From assembly GCA_025363655.1 (NCBI GenBank), contig JANYDK010000026.1:1-64000 (forward strand): 64,000 bases of DNA, read 5' to 3'. Below the pieces are notes generated by a model. It had not been told where the DNA came from and did no database searches. It saw only the letters and a program-made list of their open reading frames with translations. This document shows, one piece after another, positions 4,294 through 64,000 of this stretch (positions are counted from its first letter, which is position 1; each line of letters begins with the position of its first letter). A program made the translations under genes and the position numbers. This stretch comes from Deltaproteobacteria bacterium. Lineage in GTDB: Bacteria; Myxococcota_A; Polyangia; Polyangiales; JADJMO01.

Positions 4294-5942
4294 AGCTGCA
4301 CCAGCGTCAGCTTCGGATGCTCCCAGGCGACGAGGCCGCCCGTGAGGCCGAGCGTGACGCGGGCAGCGCTGCCGCCCGCTCCGAGAAGGACGGGCGTGCG
4401 CCAGGCATCCGCGGCGCGATCGTAACGTACGACCCAGACGCCGACTGCGTCGGTCCAGACCACCAATGCGTTGCCGAACGCGTCCATCGCCGAGCTGTGC
4501 GCATAACCCGTGGCGCCGGTGAGCGCGAGGTCGACGGCCGGCTTCCACGTCTTGCTGGCGGCATCGTAGCGACGCGCGGTCACGCCTTTGCCGACCACCG
4601 GCCAGGCGACGATGGCGTCTCCCGAGGCAGAGGCGGCGACGGTGATCGATTGTGACGAGCCGCTGCTCGCGGCGACCGCAGTGTCGAGCGTGACGATGCT
4701 GGCCGAGGCTTCGACGCGCGCGACCTTGGCGGTGGTGTCGGAAATCCAGGCGACGAAGAGCCCGCCGTCGCCGGCCATGGCCACTTTGGGGGTCGGCCAC
4801 GAGATGGTGGCGCCGGCGTCGAGCGCGAAGGTCGTGGAGAGGGTCGACGTCGCCACGGACACGCGTGTTCCATAGACGCCACCGTTGGTTTGGCAGAAGC
4901 CGACTCCCACGTAGCCGCCGCCAGCGCCGATGCCGAATACGTAGATCGATGGTTTGACGCTCGTGGGATCGACCAGCGGAACGAGCACGGGCCCGTGTCC
5001 CATTTGTGCGACGAAGAGCCCAGTCGCACCGGACCATGCTCCGAAGATTCTCCCACCGGCGACGGTGTCGACTGCCACTTTGGGCGCCGGGATTGCAGTC
5101 GTGTCGAGGACGAAGTCCGTCGAAGTACCCCCGAGGGCGTATTGACGAATCGCTGCGCCGCCGGCGCTGCGAAAGCCGACGAACGTCTTCCCCAATTCGT
5201 CGGCGACGATCGCGCTTTCGACATCGGTGCTCCCCGGCGTTTCCGAGACATCGGGGCCAGTCGGCAAATGGACGACGACGCCGCCGCTGTTGCTGATCGC
5301 GTAGCGGTTGTCGGCAGTGAGCGCGACGTCGAGGAAGACGCCGTCGGGCGCGAGTACGAAGGGCGTATGCCAAGTGCCGTCGCGCGTGCGGAAGTGGAAA
5401 GCGACGTCTGCGGCCAGGTGCGCACCATCGACAGCCGTGACGAGGTGGCTGACCGAGGTGGTGACGTCGGCGAGCAGGGGCCAACCCTTGGTAGAGAACG
5501 TCAGCGTCTTCCCATCGGCCGAAAGCTTGGAGGTCACCGAGCCGGCCACGTTCGGCGTGAGGGTGACGTTCGACGCAGGCGCCACGACCGCTCGTGAAAA
5601 CGTGATGGAAACGGGGTAATCCAACGCGACGCCGACCGCGCCGGCGGGCGGATCGATCGAGACGATCGTCAGCGGCGCGAGGGCAGAGTCGAATTCATCG
5701 GCTCCATCGCTTGCACCCGTAGTGTCGAATGCGTCAACCGCATCCGATGCATCATGTGTGTCGACTGCGGCATCGGCTGGGGTGTCGGCCGTCACGTCGC
5801 CAACGGTGGTGTCCGCGCCCCCCGTATCCACACTCGGGATCACGCCCGCATCGTCGGAGACGCTTCCGCAGCCCGCGAGCGCGATCGACATCATGAGCGG
5901 CAGGGCGACGTGCGACCGGCGCTTCACGGGGCGGACTTGCAT
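4287..5942 (-). CDS. Lipoprotein with Ig-like (SbsA/Big_5) domain and beta-propeller-like repeats
   Basis: 551 residues. A lipoprotein signal runs to Cys25 (SIALAGC). Residues about 30-85 are a linker of almost only Asp, Ala, Thr, Gly and Val. Residues about 88-185 form an SbsA-type Ig-like domain (VSIDPPAGAVGVALDYPVSI, then ITFSRAVV and FHFRT), usually a structural spacer on bacterial surfaces. The rest (about 190-551) contains repeated short blocks ending in phrases such as ALVVWTDAVGVWVVRY and GLFVAWISDT, as in beta-propeller-like surface proteins. The start chosen gives a normal signal peptide; a longer frame upstream is Arg-rich and is not convincing. Function is unknown, probably an outer-membrane-anchored surface or binding protein. 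Confidence 0.82.
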   Translation of the reverse strand: MQVRPVKRRSHVALPLMMSIALAGCGSVSDDAGVIPSVDTGGADTTVGDVTADTPADAAVDTHDASDAVDAFDTTGASDGADEFDSALAPLTIVSIDPPAGAVGVALDYPVSITFSRAVVAPASNVTLTPNVAGSVTSKLSADGKTLTFSTKGWPLLADVTTSVSHLVTAVDGAHLAADVAFHFRTRDGTWHTPFVLAPDGVFLDVALTADNRYAISNSGGVVVHLPTGPDVSETPGSTDVESAIVADELGKTFVGFRSAGGAAIRQYALGGTSTDFVLDTTAIPAPKVAVDTVAGGRIFGAWSGATGLFVAQMGHGPVLVPLVDPTSVKPSIYVFGIGAGGGYVGVGFCQTNGGVYGTRVSVATSTLSTTFALDAGATISWPTPKVAMAGDGGLFVAWISDTTAKVARVEASASIVTLDTAVAASSGSSQSITVAASASGDAIVAWPVVGKGVTARRYDAASKTWKPAVDLALTGATGYAHSSAMDAFGNALVVWTDAVGVWVVRYDRAADAWRTPVLLGAGGSAARVTLGLTGGLVAWEHPKLTLVQLY

Positions 5943-55128: not shown

Positions 55129-56031
55129 TCAAGCAGCACCTCCCGCGCGTCGTCCGCGCACCAGTTGCCAAGCGAGCAGCTTCTTCGCCACCAAGGTCGC
55201 AAGCGCGAGGAGCGTGAGCACGCTCGCGGCCGCGAAGGCGCCGGTGAAATCGTATTCGTCGTAGAGAATCTCGACGTGCAAGGGCAGCGTCACGGTGCGA
55301 CCGCGGACGTGACCGGAGACCACCGAGACCGCGCCGAACTCGCCCATCGCCCGCGCGTTGCAGAGAATCGCCCCATAAAGAAGGCCCCAACGCAATTTGG
55401 GCAAGGTGACGCGGCGGAACATCTGGAAGCCCGAGGCGCCGAGCGTCAGCGCCGCTTCTTCTTCGGCGACGCCCTGCGCCTCGAGCAGTGGGATGAGCTC
55501 GCGCGCGACGAAGGGGAAGGTGACGAAGAGCGTGGCGAGGACGATCCCCGGCACCGCGAAGACGATCTGTGTGTCGCGCGCGGCGAGGAGGGGACCGAAG
55601 AGGCCACGTCGGCCGAAGAGGAGAATGAAGACCAGCCCCGCGATCACTGGCGAGACGCTGAAGGGGAGATCGACCAGCGCGACGAGCAGACGCTTGCCGC
55701 GGAATTCGAAGCGCGCGATCAGCCACGCAGCGCCGACGCCGAGGACGAGGTTGATGGGAACCACGATCGCCGCCACGAGCAACGTGAGCAGCGCTGACTC
55801 GTGCAGCTTCGGATCGGAAATCGCCTCGAAATAGTGGGCAAATCCTTTGCCGAGGGCTTGCACGAAGACGGCGCCGAGCGGCAACAGCACGAAGAGCCCG
55901 AGGAAGCCGAGCGCGGTCGCGAGGAGCACGCCTCGGAGCAGGCCCGGGTCGCGTTGCACTTCTCGCTGGGTCTCATGCGGCATCTTCGAGCGCGGCATCT
56001 TCGACCGCGGCGATGATCTGGCGGGATTCAT
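55129..56031 (-). CDS. cysW: Sulfate ABC transporter permease CysW
   Basis: 300 residues with six transmembrane helices. The ABC permease loop [23 protein letters not shown], cited in part as [18 protein letters not shown], matches the EAA motif. [19 protein letters not shown] and [10 protein letters not shown] are also typical of CysW. It partners CysT to form the channel through which the binding protein delivers sulfate. Its start overlaps the cysT stop (ATGA). The N-terminus holds a short repeat (SKMPRSKMP) encoded by a direct DNA repeat, so the true start could be at a later Met. Confidence 0.93.
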
Positions 56032-56882
56032 CGCACGCCTCCGAGTCGCCGTCGGCTCCAGGTCTGGAGCGAACCGACGGCGACGAGCATGAGCAGCGCC
56101 ACCGCCAGCATCACCACCGCGATCGCCGTCGCGCCGGCGTAGTCGTATTGCTCGAGGCGCGTGACGATGAGGAGCGGCGCGATCTCGGTGCGCATCGGCA
56201 TGTTGCCGGAGATGAAGATGACCGAGCCGTATTCACCGAGGCCGCGCGCGAAGGCGAGCGCGAAGCCGGTGAGGAGCGCGGGGACGAGCGCGGGAAAGAC
56301 CACGCGCCGAAGCACCGTCAGGCGCGAAGCCCCGAGCGACGCGGCGGCTTCCTCGGCCTCGAAATCGATCTCGGCGATCACCGGCTCGACCGTGCGAACG
56401 ACGAACGGCAGCCCGACGAAGATCATCGCCACCACCACGCCCGCCGGCGCGAAAGCGACCTTGATTCCCCAGTGCGCGAGGTGTCGCCCGAGGACGCCAT
56501 GCTCGGCGTAGATCGAGGTCGAGGTGATGCCGGCGACCGCGGTGGGAAGCGCGAAAGGGAGATCGACCAAGGCGTCGATGAGCGCCTTGCCGGGGAAGCG
56601 GTATCGGACGAGCACCCACGCCACGACGGCGCCGAAGGGCGCGTTGATCAGCGCGGCGATGAACGAGGCGCCGAAGCTGAGTCGGTACGCGGCGAGGGCG
56701 CGCGGATCGGTGAGGGCCAAGCGCAGCCCGTGGAGCCCGACCTCGCTCGACTTGGCGACGAGCGCGGCGAGCGGCACCAAGACGACGATCGACAGCCAGA
56801 AGATCGTCGTGCCCAGCGTGAGCGAGAACCCAGGAAGCACCCGCCGCGGCGCGCGCGCGACACCCGCTGCGGGCGGGCTCAT
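56028..56882 (-). CDS. cysT: Sulfate ABC transporter permease CysT (CysU)
   Basis: 284 residues, with six helices ([20 protein letters not shown] and others). [22 protein letters not shown] and [21 protein letters not shown], cited in part as [17 protein letters not shown], are the CysT hallmarks, as is [21 protein letters not shown]. The ATG at 56882 overlaps the stop of the binding-protein gene (ATGA) and its own stop overlaps cysW (ATGA), so translation is tightly coupled. It is therefore the second gene of the sulfate operon. Confidence 0.94.
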
Positions 56883-57916
56883 GATTTCGGCTTGTAGATC
56901 TGATCGAAGACGCCGCCGTCGGCGAAGTGCGTCGCCTGCGCCTTGGTCCATCCGCCGAAGACGGTGTCGACGTCGAAGAGCTCGATCTTGGCGAACTGCC
57001 CGGCGAACTCGGCGGCGATCGCCGCGTTGCGGGGGCGGTAGAAGTTCTTCCCGGCGATGCGCTGGGCCTCGTCGGTCCAGAGGAATTGCAGGTACGCCTC
57101 GGCCAGCTTGCGCGTGCCGTGCTTGTCGACGACCTTGTCGACCACCGCCACCGGCGGCTCGGCGAGGATGCTCAGCGAGGGCACGATCAGCTCGAATTTC
57201 CCCGCTCCCGCTTCCTTCTGCGAGAGGATGGCGTCGTTCTCCCAACCGACGAGGACGTCGCCGATGCCTCGTTGCACGAACGTCGTCGTCGAGCCGCGTG
57301 CGCCGGTGTCGAGCACCGGGACGTTGGCGTAGAGGCTCGCGACGTAGGCCCGCGCGGCGTCGCCGTCGTCCTTCTGCGCTGCCGCGCCAGCCTTCTTCTG
57401 CGCGTAGCCCCAGGCCGCGAGGTACGCCCAGCGCGCGCCGCCCGAGGTCTTCGGGTTGGGGAGAATCACCGAGACGCCCGGCTTGATCAGATCGTCCCAA
57501 TCCTTGATGCCCTTCGGGTTGCCGGCGCGCACCAAGAAGACGATCGTCGAGGTGTAGGGCACGCTCTTGTCGGGGAGACGCGCCTGCCACTTCGAATCGA
57601 TGAGTCCGCTCGCCGCCACCGCGTCGACGTCCGAGGCGAGGGCCAAGGTGACGACGTCGGCCTCGAGCCCGTCGATCACCGATCGAGCTTGTTTTCCTGA
57701 GCCGCCGTGCGACGAGTCGAGCGTCACCGTCTCGCCGGTCTTCTCTTTCCAGTTCTTGGCGAAGGCGACGCCGACCTCTTGGTAGAGCTCGCGGGTCGGG
57801 TCATAGGAGACGTTGAGGATCTTGGTCGGGTTCTGCGTGCGCTTGCACGAGACGCCCGCGATCGCGAAGACGGAGACCAAGAGTGCGAAGAGCGCCTCGA
57901 GTCGGTGCTGGTTCAT
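56879..57916 (-). CDS. sbp: Sulfate-binding protein of ABC transporter, lipid-anchored
   Basis: 345 residues. Unlike the usual soluble Sbp, the signal ends in a Cys at residue 24 (AIAGVSC), so it is a lipoprotein. The mature protein shows [77 protein letters not shown] and [20 protein letters not shown], the sulfate-binding fold (class 2). It captures sulfate and hands it to CysT/W. It heads the operon sbp-cysT-cysW-cysA and is downstream of a porin gene. A substitute oxyanion (e.g. molybdate) is unlikely given this motif set. Confidence 0.94.
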
Positions 57917-57933: not shown

Positions 57934-59265
57934 TCAGTAGGCGACTTGGAAGCGACCGAGGAAGAGCGTCTCCTTCGGCCGGTCACCGCCGGCGGGCGCG
58001 CAGCCTTCGAAGGTCGTCTGCACGTAGTTGGCGACGAGTTTGATCGCCGGCGCGAAGTGCCACTGCACGCCGAACGCCAGCTCGGTGGCGGTGCGCGCCT
58101 GCTTGGTGGTGTCGGCGATCGTCCGCGCGAACGGATCGTCGTCGACGTGGAGACGTCCGAGCCTGAAATCGAGCTCGATCGCGCCGAAGGTGCCCTTCTC
58201 CGGCGCGAAGACGTGTTTCGGTTTGATCGTCCCATACGAGGCCTTCTCGCCAGTGACGACGAAGCTGACGGTGACCGACGCGGCGGTGGCGCTGGCGGTG
58301 CCTGCCGCATCCGCGCGACGCACCGCTTGGTAGATGCGACCCCACTCGCCCATCACGCCGACGGGTCCGACGTAGGCGTAGGCCTGGGGCGCGAACCGAC
58401 GCTCGGTGCCGGCGGCCACGGCGTCCGTCGCAAAAGCGAAGAAGCTCTGCTGCCCGGCGGTCTTGTACGTCGTGAGCGCGCCGCTGTGCTGACCGCGGGT
58501 CCCGGCGATGCCGAAGCCGATGTGCTTCAGCAGATCGAAGTCCGTCGCCGCGAAGGGCCGAAGGAAGATGCGGCCGGCGATGTCCTTGCGATCGTCGACG
58601 TCGCCGTCGACCTGCTGTCCGTCGAGCGCGCCGTCGAAGATGCCGCCGGCGTAGGCGATGGTGCCTTTGAGGATCTCACCGTGGACCTGCACGCCGATGT
58701 CGCGGTCGGGGAAGAGCGACGAGGGGAGGCCGCGCTCGGCGAAGGCGAGGTCGGCGTCGTTCTGCAGCCGCTCGAGCCCGACCGGCGATTTGAACTTGCC
58801 GAACCGCAGCTGAAGTTCCGGGATGATCTGCAAATTGGCGAACGCGTCGACGACGGTCGCCGCGCCGCCGCCGAGCTCGGGCGTGATGCGCAAGGTGAAG
58901 CGCTCGAAGAACGTCGCCTCGATCGCCGGTCGCACGCGCCGCGCGAGGAAGGTGTTGGTCCCGCCTTGCCCGAAGAAGCGCCCATCGAGCTGGATGATCG
59001 GCCGGAGACGAATCGAGACGTCGTCGTTCTCCAGCGCGAGCAGCCCCGGGGGCTTCTCCTTCCCGGAGCTCTCGGGAGGCGCCTTGGGACCGGAATCGTC
59101 GACCGGTCGTGGAGTCTCCAGCTCCCCGAGACGCTTCTCCAGCGCCTCGATTCGCGCCTTGTCGACGGCGTCGGTGTCCGCGAAAGCGAACGCAGAAATC
59201 AGGAGGGTGGTGAGGAGGGTGGACCCGAAGACGACGGACGTGACGGCGTGACGATGCGCGCGCAT
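57934..59265 (-). CDS. Phosphate-selective porin OprO/OprP-like, upstream of sulfate operon
   Basis: 443 residues. Signal peptide to about ALAFA (residue 28). A short coiled-coil follows ([18 protein letters not shown]), typical of OprP-type porins, then a beta-barrel: [61 protein letters not shown] and a final FLGRFQVAY with terminal aromatic residue. OprP/OprO pores pass phosphate or pyrophosphate, but the gene sits 17 bases before the sulfate operon, so it may carry sulfate here. It shares the 282-base divergent region with a DUF2325 gene. Confidence 0.9.
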
Positions 59266-60611: not shown

Positions 60612-61991
60612 CTACATCTTCACCAACATCGCCGCCGTGATCCGATTCTCGTCGTGCACCAGGTCGGGGCGCCAACCATCGACGAGCGAGCCCGGTGCGC
60701 CCTGATTTCCTCCGGGCGGCGTGATGCCGTCGTGGCCGGTGAAATACGGGATGTTGGCGTGACGATGGTTGTACTCGAGGCGAAGGGTGAAGAACTGGCT
60801 CGGCATCCAGTCGGTCGTGAGTTGCATGTCCCACGCCTTGAAGGCATCGCCCGGGCTGGCGGAGAAATAGGGCGTGCCGCTGGTCGCGGTGGCGCCATTG
60901 ATCGGTGGCATCAGCACGAGGTAGCGACCGGGGTTGGTGATCGCGCCGCCGCCGACGGTGACGCCGAAGAGATCGCGGACGAACCAGGCGCGCGCGTAGG
61001 CCATGAAGCCGACGAAGTATTGGGAGCTGCAGGTGACGCCACCGCCGCTCTCGCACCCCGCGTCGACGGTGAGCGACGCCGCGAGCTTGCTCACGGCGCC
61101 GTCAGGCGATTGGAAGAGGCGCACCATCACGCTGTCGTCGGTGTGCAAGCGCGTGCGATCGGGCACCCCAAGGGTGTCGGCACCATAGTACTGATTGCCC
61201 ACTAGCGTCACCGCCTCGGTCGGGCTCCATCGTACTTGGAGGCCGAGCCCGGGCGCGCGGTTGAATTGTCCATAGGCCTGCCAGCCATTGACCACCCACG
61301 GCTCGATTTTCAAGTTCGGCCGCAAATAGTACTGAATTCGCAGGCCGTTGAAGAACCACGGCGTGTTCGACGAGACGTACGAGGGTTGGAAGTTCCAATT
61401 GTCGGCGTGGTAGTAACTCCACAGTCCGACGTACGACATGAAGATACCCGTCTGCACGTTGATCCAGGAATTCTCGTTCACGTCGATGCGGTATCCCCCA
61501 TAGCCTTCGGAGATGTAGCGATAGGCGTCCGCCAGCTGCCACTGGCCGCGCGAGGGGCTGGCGTCGTTGCGCGCGGTGCCTGTAGCGTAGAGACCGAACT
61601 GGGTCATGATGCGACCGTGCACCGGGCCGACGTGGAAGTCGCCGCCGACGCCGACGTGGGTGACTTGAATCTCGCCGTGCCTGAAGGCTTCGCTCGAGCC
61701 GCCAATCGTGTTGTCGGCGGGGCGCGAGAATTCGTAGTGATAGGTGCTGTCGAGGCGGAACTCACCGGTGAAATAGGTCGTGGCGAGCGGGCTCGTCTTG
61801 GTGCGACCTCCGCCTGGCAGCCAGGTGAAGTCGCCAGGGAAGGCGCTCGGCTGCTGCGGCGAGAGCTCGGGATCGGCGACTGGCGCGTCGTCGGCGCGCG
61901 CGACCGTGGCACCGACGAGCAGCAGCGCGCCGGCGCAGAGCGAGACCAAGAGCGCATGCGGGAGGGGGTGGAGGAGGGATCGATTCGGCAT
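60612..61991 (-). CDS. Putative beta-barrel porin (OmpL/porin-2-like)
   Basis: 459 residues. Signal peptide to about residue 33 (GATVARA). Many strands ending in aromatic residues (FTGEFRLDSTYHYEF, RGQWQLADAYRYIS, WINVQTGIFMSYVGLWSYYH, GLRIQYYLRPNLKIEPWVVNGW, GLQVRWSPTEAVTLVGNQYYG, FFTLRLEYNHRHANIPYF) and WMPSQ are the landmarks of putative OmpL-like beta-barrel porin-2 proteins, which form solute channels. Two Cys (DAGCESGGGVTCSSQ) may form a disulfide in a loop. The transported solute is unknown. It lies 120 bases upstream of the hypothetical membrane gene on the same strand. Confidence 0.85.
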   Translation of the reverse strand: MPNRSLLHPLPHALLVSLCAGALLLVGATVARADDAPVADPELSPQQPSAFPGDFTWLPGGGRTKTSPLATTYFTGEFRLDSTYHYEFSRPADNTIGGSSEAFRHGEIQVTHVGVGGDFHVGPVHGRIMTQFGLYATGTARNDASPSRGQWQLADAYRYISEGYGGYRIDVNENSWINVQTGIFMSYVGLWSYYHADNWNFQPSYVSSNTPWFFNGLRIQYYLRPNLKIEPWVVNGWQAYGQFNRAPGLGLQVRWSPTEAVTLVGNQYYGADTLGVPDRTRLHTDDSVMVRLFQSPDGAVSKLAASLTVDAGCESGGGVTCSSQYFVGFMAYARAWFVRDLFGVTVGGGAITNPGRYLVLMPPINGATATSGTPYFSASPGDAFKAWDMQLTTDWMPSQFFTLRLEYNHRHANIPYFTGHDGITPPGGNQGAPGSLVDGWRPDLVHDENRITAAMLVKM

Positions 61992-62030
61992 CGCGCGAGC
62001 TGAAGAGCAACGCGCATTCCATGCGAAAAA

Positions 62031-62777
62031 TCACGGTAGTTCGCGTGACTTGTCGCCCTCGCGATGCGCCATTGCATCGTCTTCGACGCCGACGTCGTGC
62101 AAGTCGTCCGCGAGCTGTGGCGCGAGCGGCAGACGGAGCTCGACGGTGGTCGCGCGCGCGTCGCTCGGGATGCGGAGCGCGCCGCCGTGACGCGCGGCGA
62201 TCTCGGAGATCATCACCAGCGCGTAGGCCGGGCCGAGGGTCGCGTGCGCGATTTGCTCGAGCACCTCGGCGGGCATGCCGGGGCCGCGATCACGGACGCG
62301 TAGGATGGCCTCGTCACCACGTGCGGCGACTGCGATCGACACCGTGCTCTCGTCGGGCGCGTAGCGGAGGGCGTTGCCGGCCAGGGTCGCGATCGCCCAC
62401 GCGAGGTGGACGCGATGTCCCCAGATCGGCACCAGGTCGGGCGCGCGCAAGGCGAGGCGCACCTTGCGCGCCTTCGCTTGGCTGGCGATCGGCGCGATCG
62501 CCTCACGCGCGAGGGTCGACAACTCGAGCCGCACCCGCTCGTAGGGACCGAGGTAGCTCCCGAGCGCTTCGAGATCGAGCGAGCGTCCGACGAGCGCATG
62601 GAGCCGCGCGATCTCGCCGGCGAGCGTCTCCACCACCTCTCGTTGCGACGGCGTCAGCGGGCCCAGCTCGGGCCGCGCGAGGATGTCGATGCCGAGCTGA
62701 AGCGCGGTGAGTGGCGTCCCGATCGCGTGGGCGAGCGCGAACATCGCGTCACGATTGAGCTTGGTTTCTCGGCTCAC
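62031..62777 (-). CDS. Short cytoplasmic histidine kinase, third gene of a split signalling operon
   Basis: 248 residues, no membrane segment. The H-box is MFALAHAIGTPLTALQLGIDIL (about 12-31; His17), with HAIGTPL in place of the usual HELRTPL. The N-box is ATLAGNALRYAP (about 129-140), G1 is VRDRGPGMPAEV (about 155), and the last part is ALVMISEIAARHGGALRI. A canonical GxGLGL G2 motif is replaced by LGPAYALVMIS, so ATP binding or catalysis may be weak. The gene overlaps the response regulator by ATGA. There is no input domain here; the sensor part seems to be encoded by the first gene of this operon. Confidence 0.85.
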   Translation of the reverse strand: MSRETKLNRDAMFALAHAIGTPLTALQLGIDILARPELGPLTPSQREVVETLAGEIARLHALVGRSLDLEALGSYLGPYERVRLELSTLAREAIAPIASQAKARKVRLALRAPDLVPIWGHRVHLAWAIATLAGNALRYAPDESTVSIAVAARGDEAILRVRDRGPGMPAEVLEQIAHATLGPAYALVMISEIAARHGGALRIPSDARATTVELRLPLAPQLADDLHDVGVEDDAMAHREGDKSRELP

Positions 62778-63649
62778 GGCGCCATCTTCAGGGGCGCGTC
62801 GTGGCCGAGGATCGATCGCGCGCGCAACGCGGCGGCGTCATCGACCGAGCCGGAGAGCACGAGGAAGCTGCGAGCCTGCCCGCGTCGCGCGTGCATCGAG
62901 ACGTCGACGCCGGTGATGCGCGGGAGGCCGAGGCCGAGGAGGGTGACCTCGTGCGCGCTCTCGAGAGCCGACGACTGCGTCAGCTCGATCGGTCTCGCGC
63001 GGGCCTCCGCGTACATCGCGAGACGCGCCAGGCCTTCGTGCGGGCTCGGCGCGGCGCTGTTGTCGCTCTGCTGAAGGGCGAGGGAGGCGCGATATCCACG
63101 GTCGGCGTCGTGGTCGCGGCCCTCGAGCTCGGCGATCACCGCCGCCATCGACATCAGTTCGCCGTCGAATGGATCGACTTGCGCCCTCCGAAGATGCAGG
63201 CGGGCGCCTTCGAGATCGCCGAGGTGGATCGCGCGCAGGACGCCGTCGATCGCGCTCGCCACCTCGAGACCGATCATGTGCTCGGGCGTGCTCCGGAGCG
63301 TCACGCGCGTCAGTGCCGCGAGCACTTCGGCCGGAGAAAATGGCTTCATCAGCACGTCTGCGATGGGCACGCGGACGGCCTCGATCAAAGTCGACGCCGA
63401 GAGCACCGCACCGGCGAGTACGATGGGGAGCCGTGGATCGACGGCGTGCAACGAACGGAGGGCTTCGATCGTGCCTCCATGACGACGCTCGTCGACGAGC
63501 GCGACGTCGAACTCTCCGCTCCGCGCGCGATCGCAGGCGTCGGTCGCCTCGGCGCAGGTCTCGACGTACCAGCCGGCCGCCGGGAGAAGACGCGCGAGGA
63601 GACCCCGCAAGTGCGCGTCGTCGTCGAGGAGAAGGACGCGTCCCTTCAT
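62774..63649 (-). CDS. Response regulator with large unknown output region
   Basis: 291 residues. The receiver (about 1-118) has RVLLLDDDAHLRGLLARLL, the phospho-acceptor Asp in ALVDERRHGG (residue 53) and the Lys in LMKPFSPAEV (residue 102). The usual Thr/Ser on strand 4 is replaced by Gly/Ala (IVLAGAVL), so phosphorylation-driven switching may differ. The rest (about 120-291) is helical, with an EHMIGLEVASAIDGVLRAIHLGDLEGARLHLRRA block that could be TPR-like, and lacks a DNA-binding domain. Stop and start overlap both neighbours by ATGA, giving tight coupling in the operon. Confidence 0.85.
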   Translation of the reverse strand: MKGRVLLLDDDAHLRGLLARLLPAAGWYVETCAEATDACDRARSGEFDVALVDERRHGGTIEALRSLHAVDPRLPIVLAGAVLSASTLIEAVRVPIADVLMKPFSPAEVLAALTRVTLRSTPEHMIGLEVASAIDGVLRAIHLGDLEGARLHLRRAQVDPFDGELMSMAAVIAELEGRDHDADRGYRASLALQQSDNSAAPSPHEGLARLAMYAEARARPIELTQSSALESAHEVTLLGLGLPRITGVDVSMHARRGQARSFLVLSGSVDDAAALRARSILGHDAPLKMAP

Positions 63650-64000
63650 GCGTCCCCCATACCCACGACCAAGACGTCGACGTCGGGAACGAGCCGCATG
63701 AAGCGCGTGAGCACGCTACCGCGGAGACGCTCGCGAAAGCGCGCCGCGATCGTCGAGGTGCCCGGCCGCCCGAAGACCGCATGCGAGATTCGTCGCTCCA
63801 GACAGAACCGCGCCAGCGCCTCGGCGACGTCGGTGCCCTCGAGTCGCACGACCTCGGCGCCGAGCTCCTTGGCGAGCCGCATGTTCTCGGTGAGCGATCG
63901 CAGATCGTCGCTCGAGATGAGCTCCACGGATTCGCTCGGGGTACGCACGTAGGCGACGTACCAGACGCTGTTCGGCCCGCCTGCGAGCCGCGCGCCGTGA
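63646..64000 (-). CDS. KdpD-like sensor piece with Usp-type domain, partial at right edge
   Basis: Only the last 118 residues are in the window. They read HGARLAGGPNSVWYVAYVRTP, then LTENMRLAKELGAEVVRLEG, VAEALARFCLERRISHAVFGRP and RGSVLTRFMRLVPDVDVLVV. This is the universal-stress/osmosensing region that lies between the KdpD domain and the membrane part of the K+ sensor KdpD. The protein ends there; no transmembrane helices or kinase core follow. Its stop overlaps the response regulator start (ATGA). It looks like a split or short KdpD, with kinase function supplied by the third gene of the operon. Confidence 0.85.
   Translation of the reverse strand, partial: HGARLAGGPNSVWYVAYVRTPSESVELISSDDLRSLTENMRLAKELGAEVVRLEGTDVAEALARFCLERRISHAVFGRPGTSTIAARFRERLRGSVLTRFMRLVPDVDVLVVGMGDA

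What the first reader, a model, noticed from the sequence alone, without database searches (positions are those of the whole stretch)
62031..64000. Split KdpD-type signalling operon: sensor piece, response regulator, short kinase
The KdpD-like Usp region ends before the kinase core and is translationally coupled (ATGA) to a response regulator and then to a stand-alone kinase. Both partners are atypical: Gly/Ala on the receiver strand 4, HAIGTPL H-box and a lost G2 motif in the kinase. No KdpE-type DNA-binding output is seen. This could be a K+/osmotic or c-di-nucleotide-like sensor rewired into three proteins.
Basis: partly seen in the sequence, partly recalled or inferred. Interest (0 to 1): 0.6.

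Follow-up and report, generated by a model that had tools for sequence, protein, structure and literature searches.

The report
Split potassium-sensing operon in a myxobacterium
Beside its high-affinity potassium pump genes this myxobacterium carries a short potassium sensor followed by a degenerate receiver protein and a small histidine kinase that looks unable to phosphorylate itself but able to dephosphorylate, and comparison with relatives suggests the set tunes a separate sigma-54 regulator that switches the pump on.

Summary
Reading past the window edge shows a complete short KdpD (about 376 aa; KdpD and Usp domains, no kinase) joined by 4-base overlaps to a receiver-TPR protein (RR1) and a small HisKA kinase (HK1), divergent from an intact kdpFABC operon. 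KdpD occurs once in the genome; eight relatives end alike, so it is no frameshift. Stand-alone KdpD is known as a c-di-AMP-controlled serine kinase of KdpB. RR1 has orthologues in 9 of 184 genomes of the order; all nine, and one other, encode a distinctive membrane kinase (HK2) paired with a sigma-54 NtrC-type regulator (RR2). RR2-HK2 is joined to the cassette in six genomes but unlinked here and in Minicystis rosea. kdp upstream regions share paired palindromes about 59 bp before a -24/-12-like site, clear in relatives and degenerate here. HK1 orthologues all carry HA..T instead of HE..T, a change that abolishes kinase but not phosphatase activity in tested HisKA enzymes. Best reading: a post-translational pump brake plus a degenerate adaptor/phosphatase branch tuning an unlinked NtrC/sigma-54 pathway. 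New variant of a known split Kdp system; all activities are inferred.

The parts
63646..64000 (-). 3' part of short kdpD (Usp domain and stop); the gene continues to about 64776 on contig C19
   Evidence: PF02702 and PF00582 matches, Walker A GMAAGVGKT and Walker B DE present
62774..63649 (-). RR1: receiver domain with switch Thr replaced by Ala, then TPR-like helices; no DNA-binding domain
62031..62777 (-). HK1: short soluble HisKA-HATPase protein, H-box HAIGT, degenerate G2
60612..61991 (-). BBP2-type porin downstream; homologues lie at the kdp locus in relatives
   Evidence: PF07642 2.6e-37
62006..62021 (-). weak -24/-12-like site before the porin, TGGAATGCGCGTTGCT; may be chance
   Evidence: 16 sites of this score or better in the 64-kb window

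Best explanation
A split Kdp signalling module. (1) Short KdpD is a cytoplasmic serine kinase that phosphorylates KdpB at the TGES serine and shuts the pump when K+ is ample, probably triggered by c-di-AMP on its Usp domain. (2) kdpFABC transcription starts at a -24/-12 promoter under an NtrC-type activator (RR2) controlled by a membrane kinase (HK2); here RR2-HK2 is unlinked, with two candidate pairs on contigs C39 and C123. (3) HK1 cannot autophosphorylate (HA instead of HE/HD) but keeps the phosphatase Thr, so it lowers RR2-P as a phosphatase or as a dimer partner of HK2. (4) RR1 is a degenerate receiver on a TPR-like scaffold that couples KdpD to HK1 or HK2, so that pump braking and transcriptional shut-off go together. 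Shown by sequence: architecture, linkage, co-occurrence, residue losses. Inferred: every activity and protein contact.
For: kdpFABC adjacent. KdpD keeps Walker A/B and KdpB keeps DESAITGES; tested homologue in PMC11018627; diadenylate cyclase present. RR1 and HK2 co-occur: 9 of 9 RR1 genomes, 1 of 175 others (Fisher 1.8e-14, ignoring relatedness). RR2-HK2 follow the cassette in six genomes. RR2 has Sigma54_activat, GAFTGA and HTH_8. -24/-12 site TGGCACGTCGGCTGCT at L006:4961 (0 of 200 shuffles); paired palindromes about 59 bp upstream of the -24 in relatives; in M. rosea a near-perfect copy precedes the unlinked RR2. HK1: HA..T in 4 of 4 orthologues and in no other of 60 HisKA proteins aligned; E-to-A there removes kinase but not phosphatase activity in four HisKA kinases (PMC3510030). 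RR1 active site degenerate in every relative.
Against: Nothing was tested biochemically. In this genome the palindromes are degenerate (cores TGC-N6-GCA only; two in 650 bp is mildly unusual). Which RR2-HK2 pair serves kdp is unresolved. Four relatives do without HK1, so it is not essential to the system. In three relatives (G009, G399, G400) the -12 element lacks GC. RR1's acidic pair, Asp and Lys are intact here, so phosphorylation is not excluded. c-di-AMP binding was not tested.
Confidence: 0.45

Rival explanations
1. HK1 is an active kinase for RR1, and RR1-P acts by protein binding, for example on KdpD or KdpFABC: a self-contained two-component branch.
For: HK1 keeps the His, N box and G1; RR1 here keeps DD, Asp53 and Lys; the genes overlap by 4 bases.
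Against: HA at the H-box in all four HK1; G2 lost here and in G002; RR1 receiver degenerate in all relatives, two with Glu for Asp53; RR1 occurs without HK1 in four genomes.
Confidence: 0.15
2. HK1 is a phosphotransfer or dimer partner: its conserved His is phosphorylated in trans by HK2 in a heterodimer and passes phosphate to RR1 or RR2.
For: His conserved in all four HK1; HK2 always present in the same genomes.
Against: HK1 and HK2 cores form separate clades; no direct evidence of heterodimers.
Confidence: 0.2
3. RR1 and HK1 are decaying remnants here after RR2-HK2 moved away, with KdpD alone still functional.
For: HK1 here is the longest HK1 branch and lacks G2; RR1's C-terminus is about 30-60 residues shorter than in relatives; operators are degenerate.
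Against: All three frames are open, overlap by 4 bases and keep coding composition; conserved residues remain; M. rosea has the same unlinked arrangement with a well-kept HK1.
Confidence: 0.15

Closest known systems
Short KdpD/Usp serine kinase (Deinococcus geothermalis; NCBIfam NF038185 KdpD_non_kinase)
   Same: KdpD and Usp domains without kinase core, Walker motifs, encoded beside kdpFABC
   Different: Scores 337 against a cut-off of 550 in NF038185; followed here by RR1 and HK1
Desulfovibrio vulgaris DVU3334-3339 (PMC3333781)
   Same: kdp operon with KdpD sensor/UspA and histidine kinase on separate ORFs and a regulator shown to bind its own kdp operon
   Different: No RR1 or HK1 counterpart described; regulator gene in the operon
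Deinococcus radiodurans kdp (PMC5716572)
   Same: Truncated kdpD with separate kinase and regulator
   Different: DNA-binding regulator and kinase adjacent and divergent; no NtrC-type activator described
CrdS E372A and equivalent HisKA mutants (PMC3510030)
   Same: H-A-x-x-T/N as in HK1: kinase-dead, phosphatase-competent in vitro
   Different: Those are laboratory mutants; HK1 would be a natural case and is untested
E. coli KdpD/KdpE
   Same: KdpD and Usp domains; controls kdpFABC
   Different: No TM/GAF/kinase part in this KdpD, no OmpR-type output in the cassette

Membership tests
KdpD/Usp atypical serine kinase | KdpD domain with Walker A G-x5-GKT and Walker B DE | tested here: met
   GMAAGVGKT and VDE
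KdpD/Usp atypical serine kinase | TGES target serine in KdpB | tested here: met
   DESAITGESAPV
KdpD/Usp atypical serine kinase | Phosphorylates KdpB, stimulated by c-di-AMP | not testable with these tools
   Only a diadenylate cyclase gene was found
Full-length KdpD histidine kinase | TM/GAF and HisKA-HATPase domains in the same chain | tested here: not met
   Gene ends after Usp; single PF02702 copy
HisKA histidine kinase (HK1) | HisKA and HATPase_c domains with phospho-acceptor His | tested here: met
   H17
HisKA histidine kinase (HK1) | Acidic residue after His (H-E/D-x-x-T/N), needed for autokinase | tested here: not met
   Ala in all four orthologues; Thr at +4 kept
HisKA histidine kinase (HK1) | G2 ATP-lid motif | tested here: not met
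   GPAYAL here; intact-like in G393 and G458
Response regulator (RR1) | Receiver with acidic pair, Asp, Thr/Ser, Lys | tested here: inconclusive
   Here all but Thr; in relatives acidic pair, Asp or Lys are lost
Response regulator (RR1) | DNA-binding output domain as in KdpE | tested here: not met
   No Pfam DNA-binding domain; TPR-like helices
Sigma-54-dependent kdp promoter | -24/-12 element with upstream activator sites | tested here: inconclusive
   Strong -24/-12 here, upstream palindromes only core-conserved; clear in relatives

The most novel reading that the evidence does not exclude
A natural HisKA phosphatase without kinase activity (HK1) and a degenerate receiver-TPR adaptor (RR1) form a phosphorylation-silent bridge by which c-di-AMP-bound KdpD both brakes the K+ pump and switches off its NtrC/sigma-54 transcription.
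Probability: 0.25. Interest if true: 0.65.

Novelty: new variant of a known kind. Interest (0 to 1): 0.45.

Why it matters
[quoted passage not shown] This locus and its relatives point to an NtrC/sigma-54 answer in part of the Myxococcota and offer a candidate natural phosphatase-only kinase. Minicystis rosea DSM 24000, a named strain with a complete genome, carries the same KdpD-RR1-HK1 set, so the idea can be tested.

Tried and rejected
Frameshift or assembly artefact at the KdpD end: rejected, eight relatives have the same short KdpD. Full-length KdpD elsewhere in the genome: none found. RR1 as a KdpE-like DNA-binding regulator: no such domain. The search for related loci with the eight-row RR1 alignment failed for lack of conserved stretches; a three-row alignment gave Byssovorax sp., Minicystis rosea and a weak Pseudomonas hit. 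The RR1 model is poor beyond residue 195 (pLDDT under 50), so its C-terminal fold is unassigned; Foldseek's top hit is PorX, driven largely by the receiver. RR2 and HK2 trees do not resolve which of the two copies here is the kdp pair. A palindrome weight matrix trained on relatives gives no hit in this genome's kdp intergenic region. A broad search for KdpE-like regulators was not made.

Full report
Observation. The three reading frames and their overlaps are as described. The contig extends beyond the window (C19, 102142 bases); in locus L006 position = window position - 59999. kdpD runs L006:3647-4777 (-), with a likely GTG start because relatives begin at the same residues. Divergently lie a 27-aa ORF (L006:4989), kdpF (match to TIGR02115), kdpA, kdpB and kdpC. 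The genome has one PF02702 copy and one diadenylate cyclase.

What KdpD probably does. PMC11018627 shows that the KdpD domain is a Walker-type serine kinase of KdpB Ser162 and that the short KdpD/Usp protein of D. geothermalis responds to c-di-AMP; it lists Myxococcota among phyla with mainly short KdpD. The Walker motifs are present here, as is the DESAITGES target in KdpB. The activity here is an inference from those motifs.

Relatives. A profile of four RR1 proteins finds nine of 184 genomes of the order (one match is cut by a contig end). Gene orders are KdpD-RR1-HK1-RR2-HK2 (G393, a Byssovorax MAG, and G002), KdpD-RR1-RR2-HK2 (G009, G399, G462, G467) and KdpD-RR1-HK1 alone (this genome and G458, Minicystis rosea DSM 24000). 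G400 splits the locus over two contigs, with RR2-HK2 near kdpABC.

Co-occurrence. HK2, recognised by its sensor region, occurs at E below 1e-99 in ten genomes: the nine RR1 genomes and G003, which has no KdpA or KdpD match. Fisher's test gives 1.8e-14; the genomes are related, so this overstates independence, but the nine fall in three families. This genome has two HK2-RR2 pairs, on C39 and C123; the trees do not say which is the kdp pair. In M. rosea HK2 lies 2.4 Mb from the cassette. RR2 has a receiver, Sigma54_activat with GAFTGA and HTH_8. HK2 groups with kdp-linked kinases of other Myxococcota (SH-aLRT 91), which fits HK2 being the older kdp kinase.

Promoters. The score and the palindrome were chosen after looking at these loci, so the p-values are descriptive. 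Sigma-54-like scores upstream of kdpA are higher in short-KdpD than in full-length-KdpD loci (one-sided Mann-Whitney p = 0.002, 17 against 19 loci). Here the site is TGGCACGTCGGCTGCT at L006:4961. TCGTGC-N6-GCACGA with up to two mismatches occurs upstream of kdpA in six of seven RR1 genomes (ten sites in 4.35 kb, against 11 per 64 kb in the window), in one of ten other short-KdpD loci and in five of 19 full-length loci. In G393, G399, G400, G467 and G009 two copies lie 32-34 bp apart (the second copy in G393 only core-conserved), the nearer one 58-60 bp (71 in G009) before the -24 element. Here only the cores TGC-N6-GCA remain, at L006:4860-4877 and 4902-4919, that is 101 and 59 bp before the -24; the nearer spacing equals that of the relatives, but two such cores in 650 bp are only mildly unusual (29 in the 64-kb window). 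Exact sites are few genome-wide: both of the two in G400 are at its kdp genes. In M. rosea a strong site lies before the unlinked RR2.

HK1 and RR1. HK1 is a clade (SH-aLRT 99) with HA at the H-box in all four and Thr at +4. PMC3510030 reports that E-to-A at this position abolishes autophosphorylation but not phosphatase activity in CrdS, HK853, HK4262 and HK1190. HQ occurs in several other kinases here, including the HK2 of G002 and M. rosea, so the H+1 residue is not absolutely fixed among presumably active kinases. RR1 is a receiver plus TPR-like helices. Here its active site lacks only the switch Thr; in all seven relatives read in full the second residue of the acidic pair is lost, two have Glu for the phospho-acceptor Asp and one Arg for Lys, as expected of a scaffold more than of a phosphorylation switch.

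Verdict. Known parts (short KdpD serine kinase; kdp control by separate kinase and regulator as in D. vulgaris, PMC3333781, and D. radiodurans, PMC5716572) in a new arrangement with two extra degenerate signalling proteins. The mechanism is proposed, not shown. Six paper searches found no description of this arrangement, but the library holds only open-licence papers.

Noticed in passing
L006:4989-5072 (contig C19:64988-65071, just outside the window): A 27-aa ORF (MTELLVLAVSAFSYVAAFGFLRVCDRI) precedes kdpF; similar ORFs precede kdpF in G393, G467, G399, G400, G009, G458 and G004. No Pfam or NCBIfam match.
   Followed up: partly
60612-61991: A BBP2-type porin lies next to the cassette; homologues sit at the kdp locus in several relatives, in M. 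rosea and G393 with palindrome-like sites upstream. Possibly part of the same K+ regulon.
   Followed up: partly
L174:4506-7304 (M. rosea kdpB-kdpC): kdpB and kdpC matches each fall in two reading frames in the M. rosea chromosome record, suggesting frameshifts or sequence errors.
   Followed up: no
L164:8639-11934 (G003): G003 has an HK2-RR2 pair with a palindrome upstream (17.4 bits) but no KdpA or KdpD match, so this pair may have another role there.
   Followed up: no
L092:2641-4746 and L167:8288-11755: HK2 of G002 and of M. rosea has HQFKT at the H-box instead of HE, as do kinases at the kdp loci of G236 and G322.
   Followed up: no
55129-57916: ORFs that look like a sulfate/anion ABC transporter (two permeases and a binding protein), with a porin-like ORF at 57934-59265 (judged by eye only).
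   Followed up: no
G000 contigs C7:1640, C44:43153, C62:14181: The same 18-mer TCGTGCTGAGAGGCACGA occurs at three places in this genome, possibly a repeated element.
   Followed up: no
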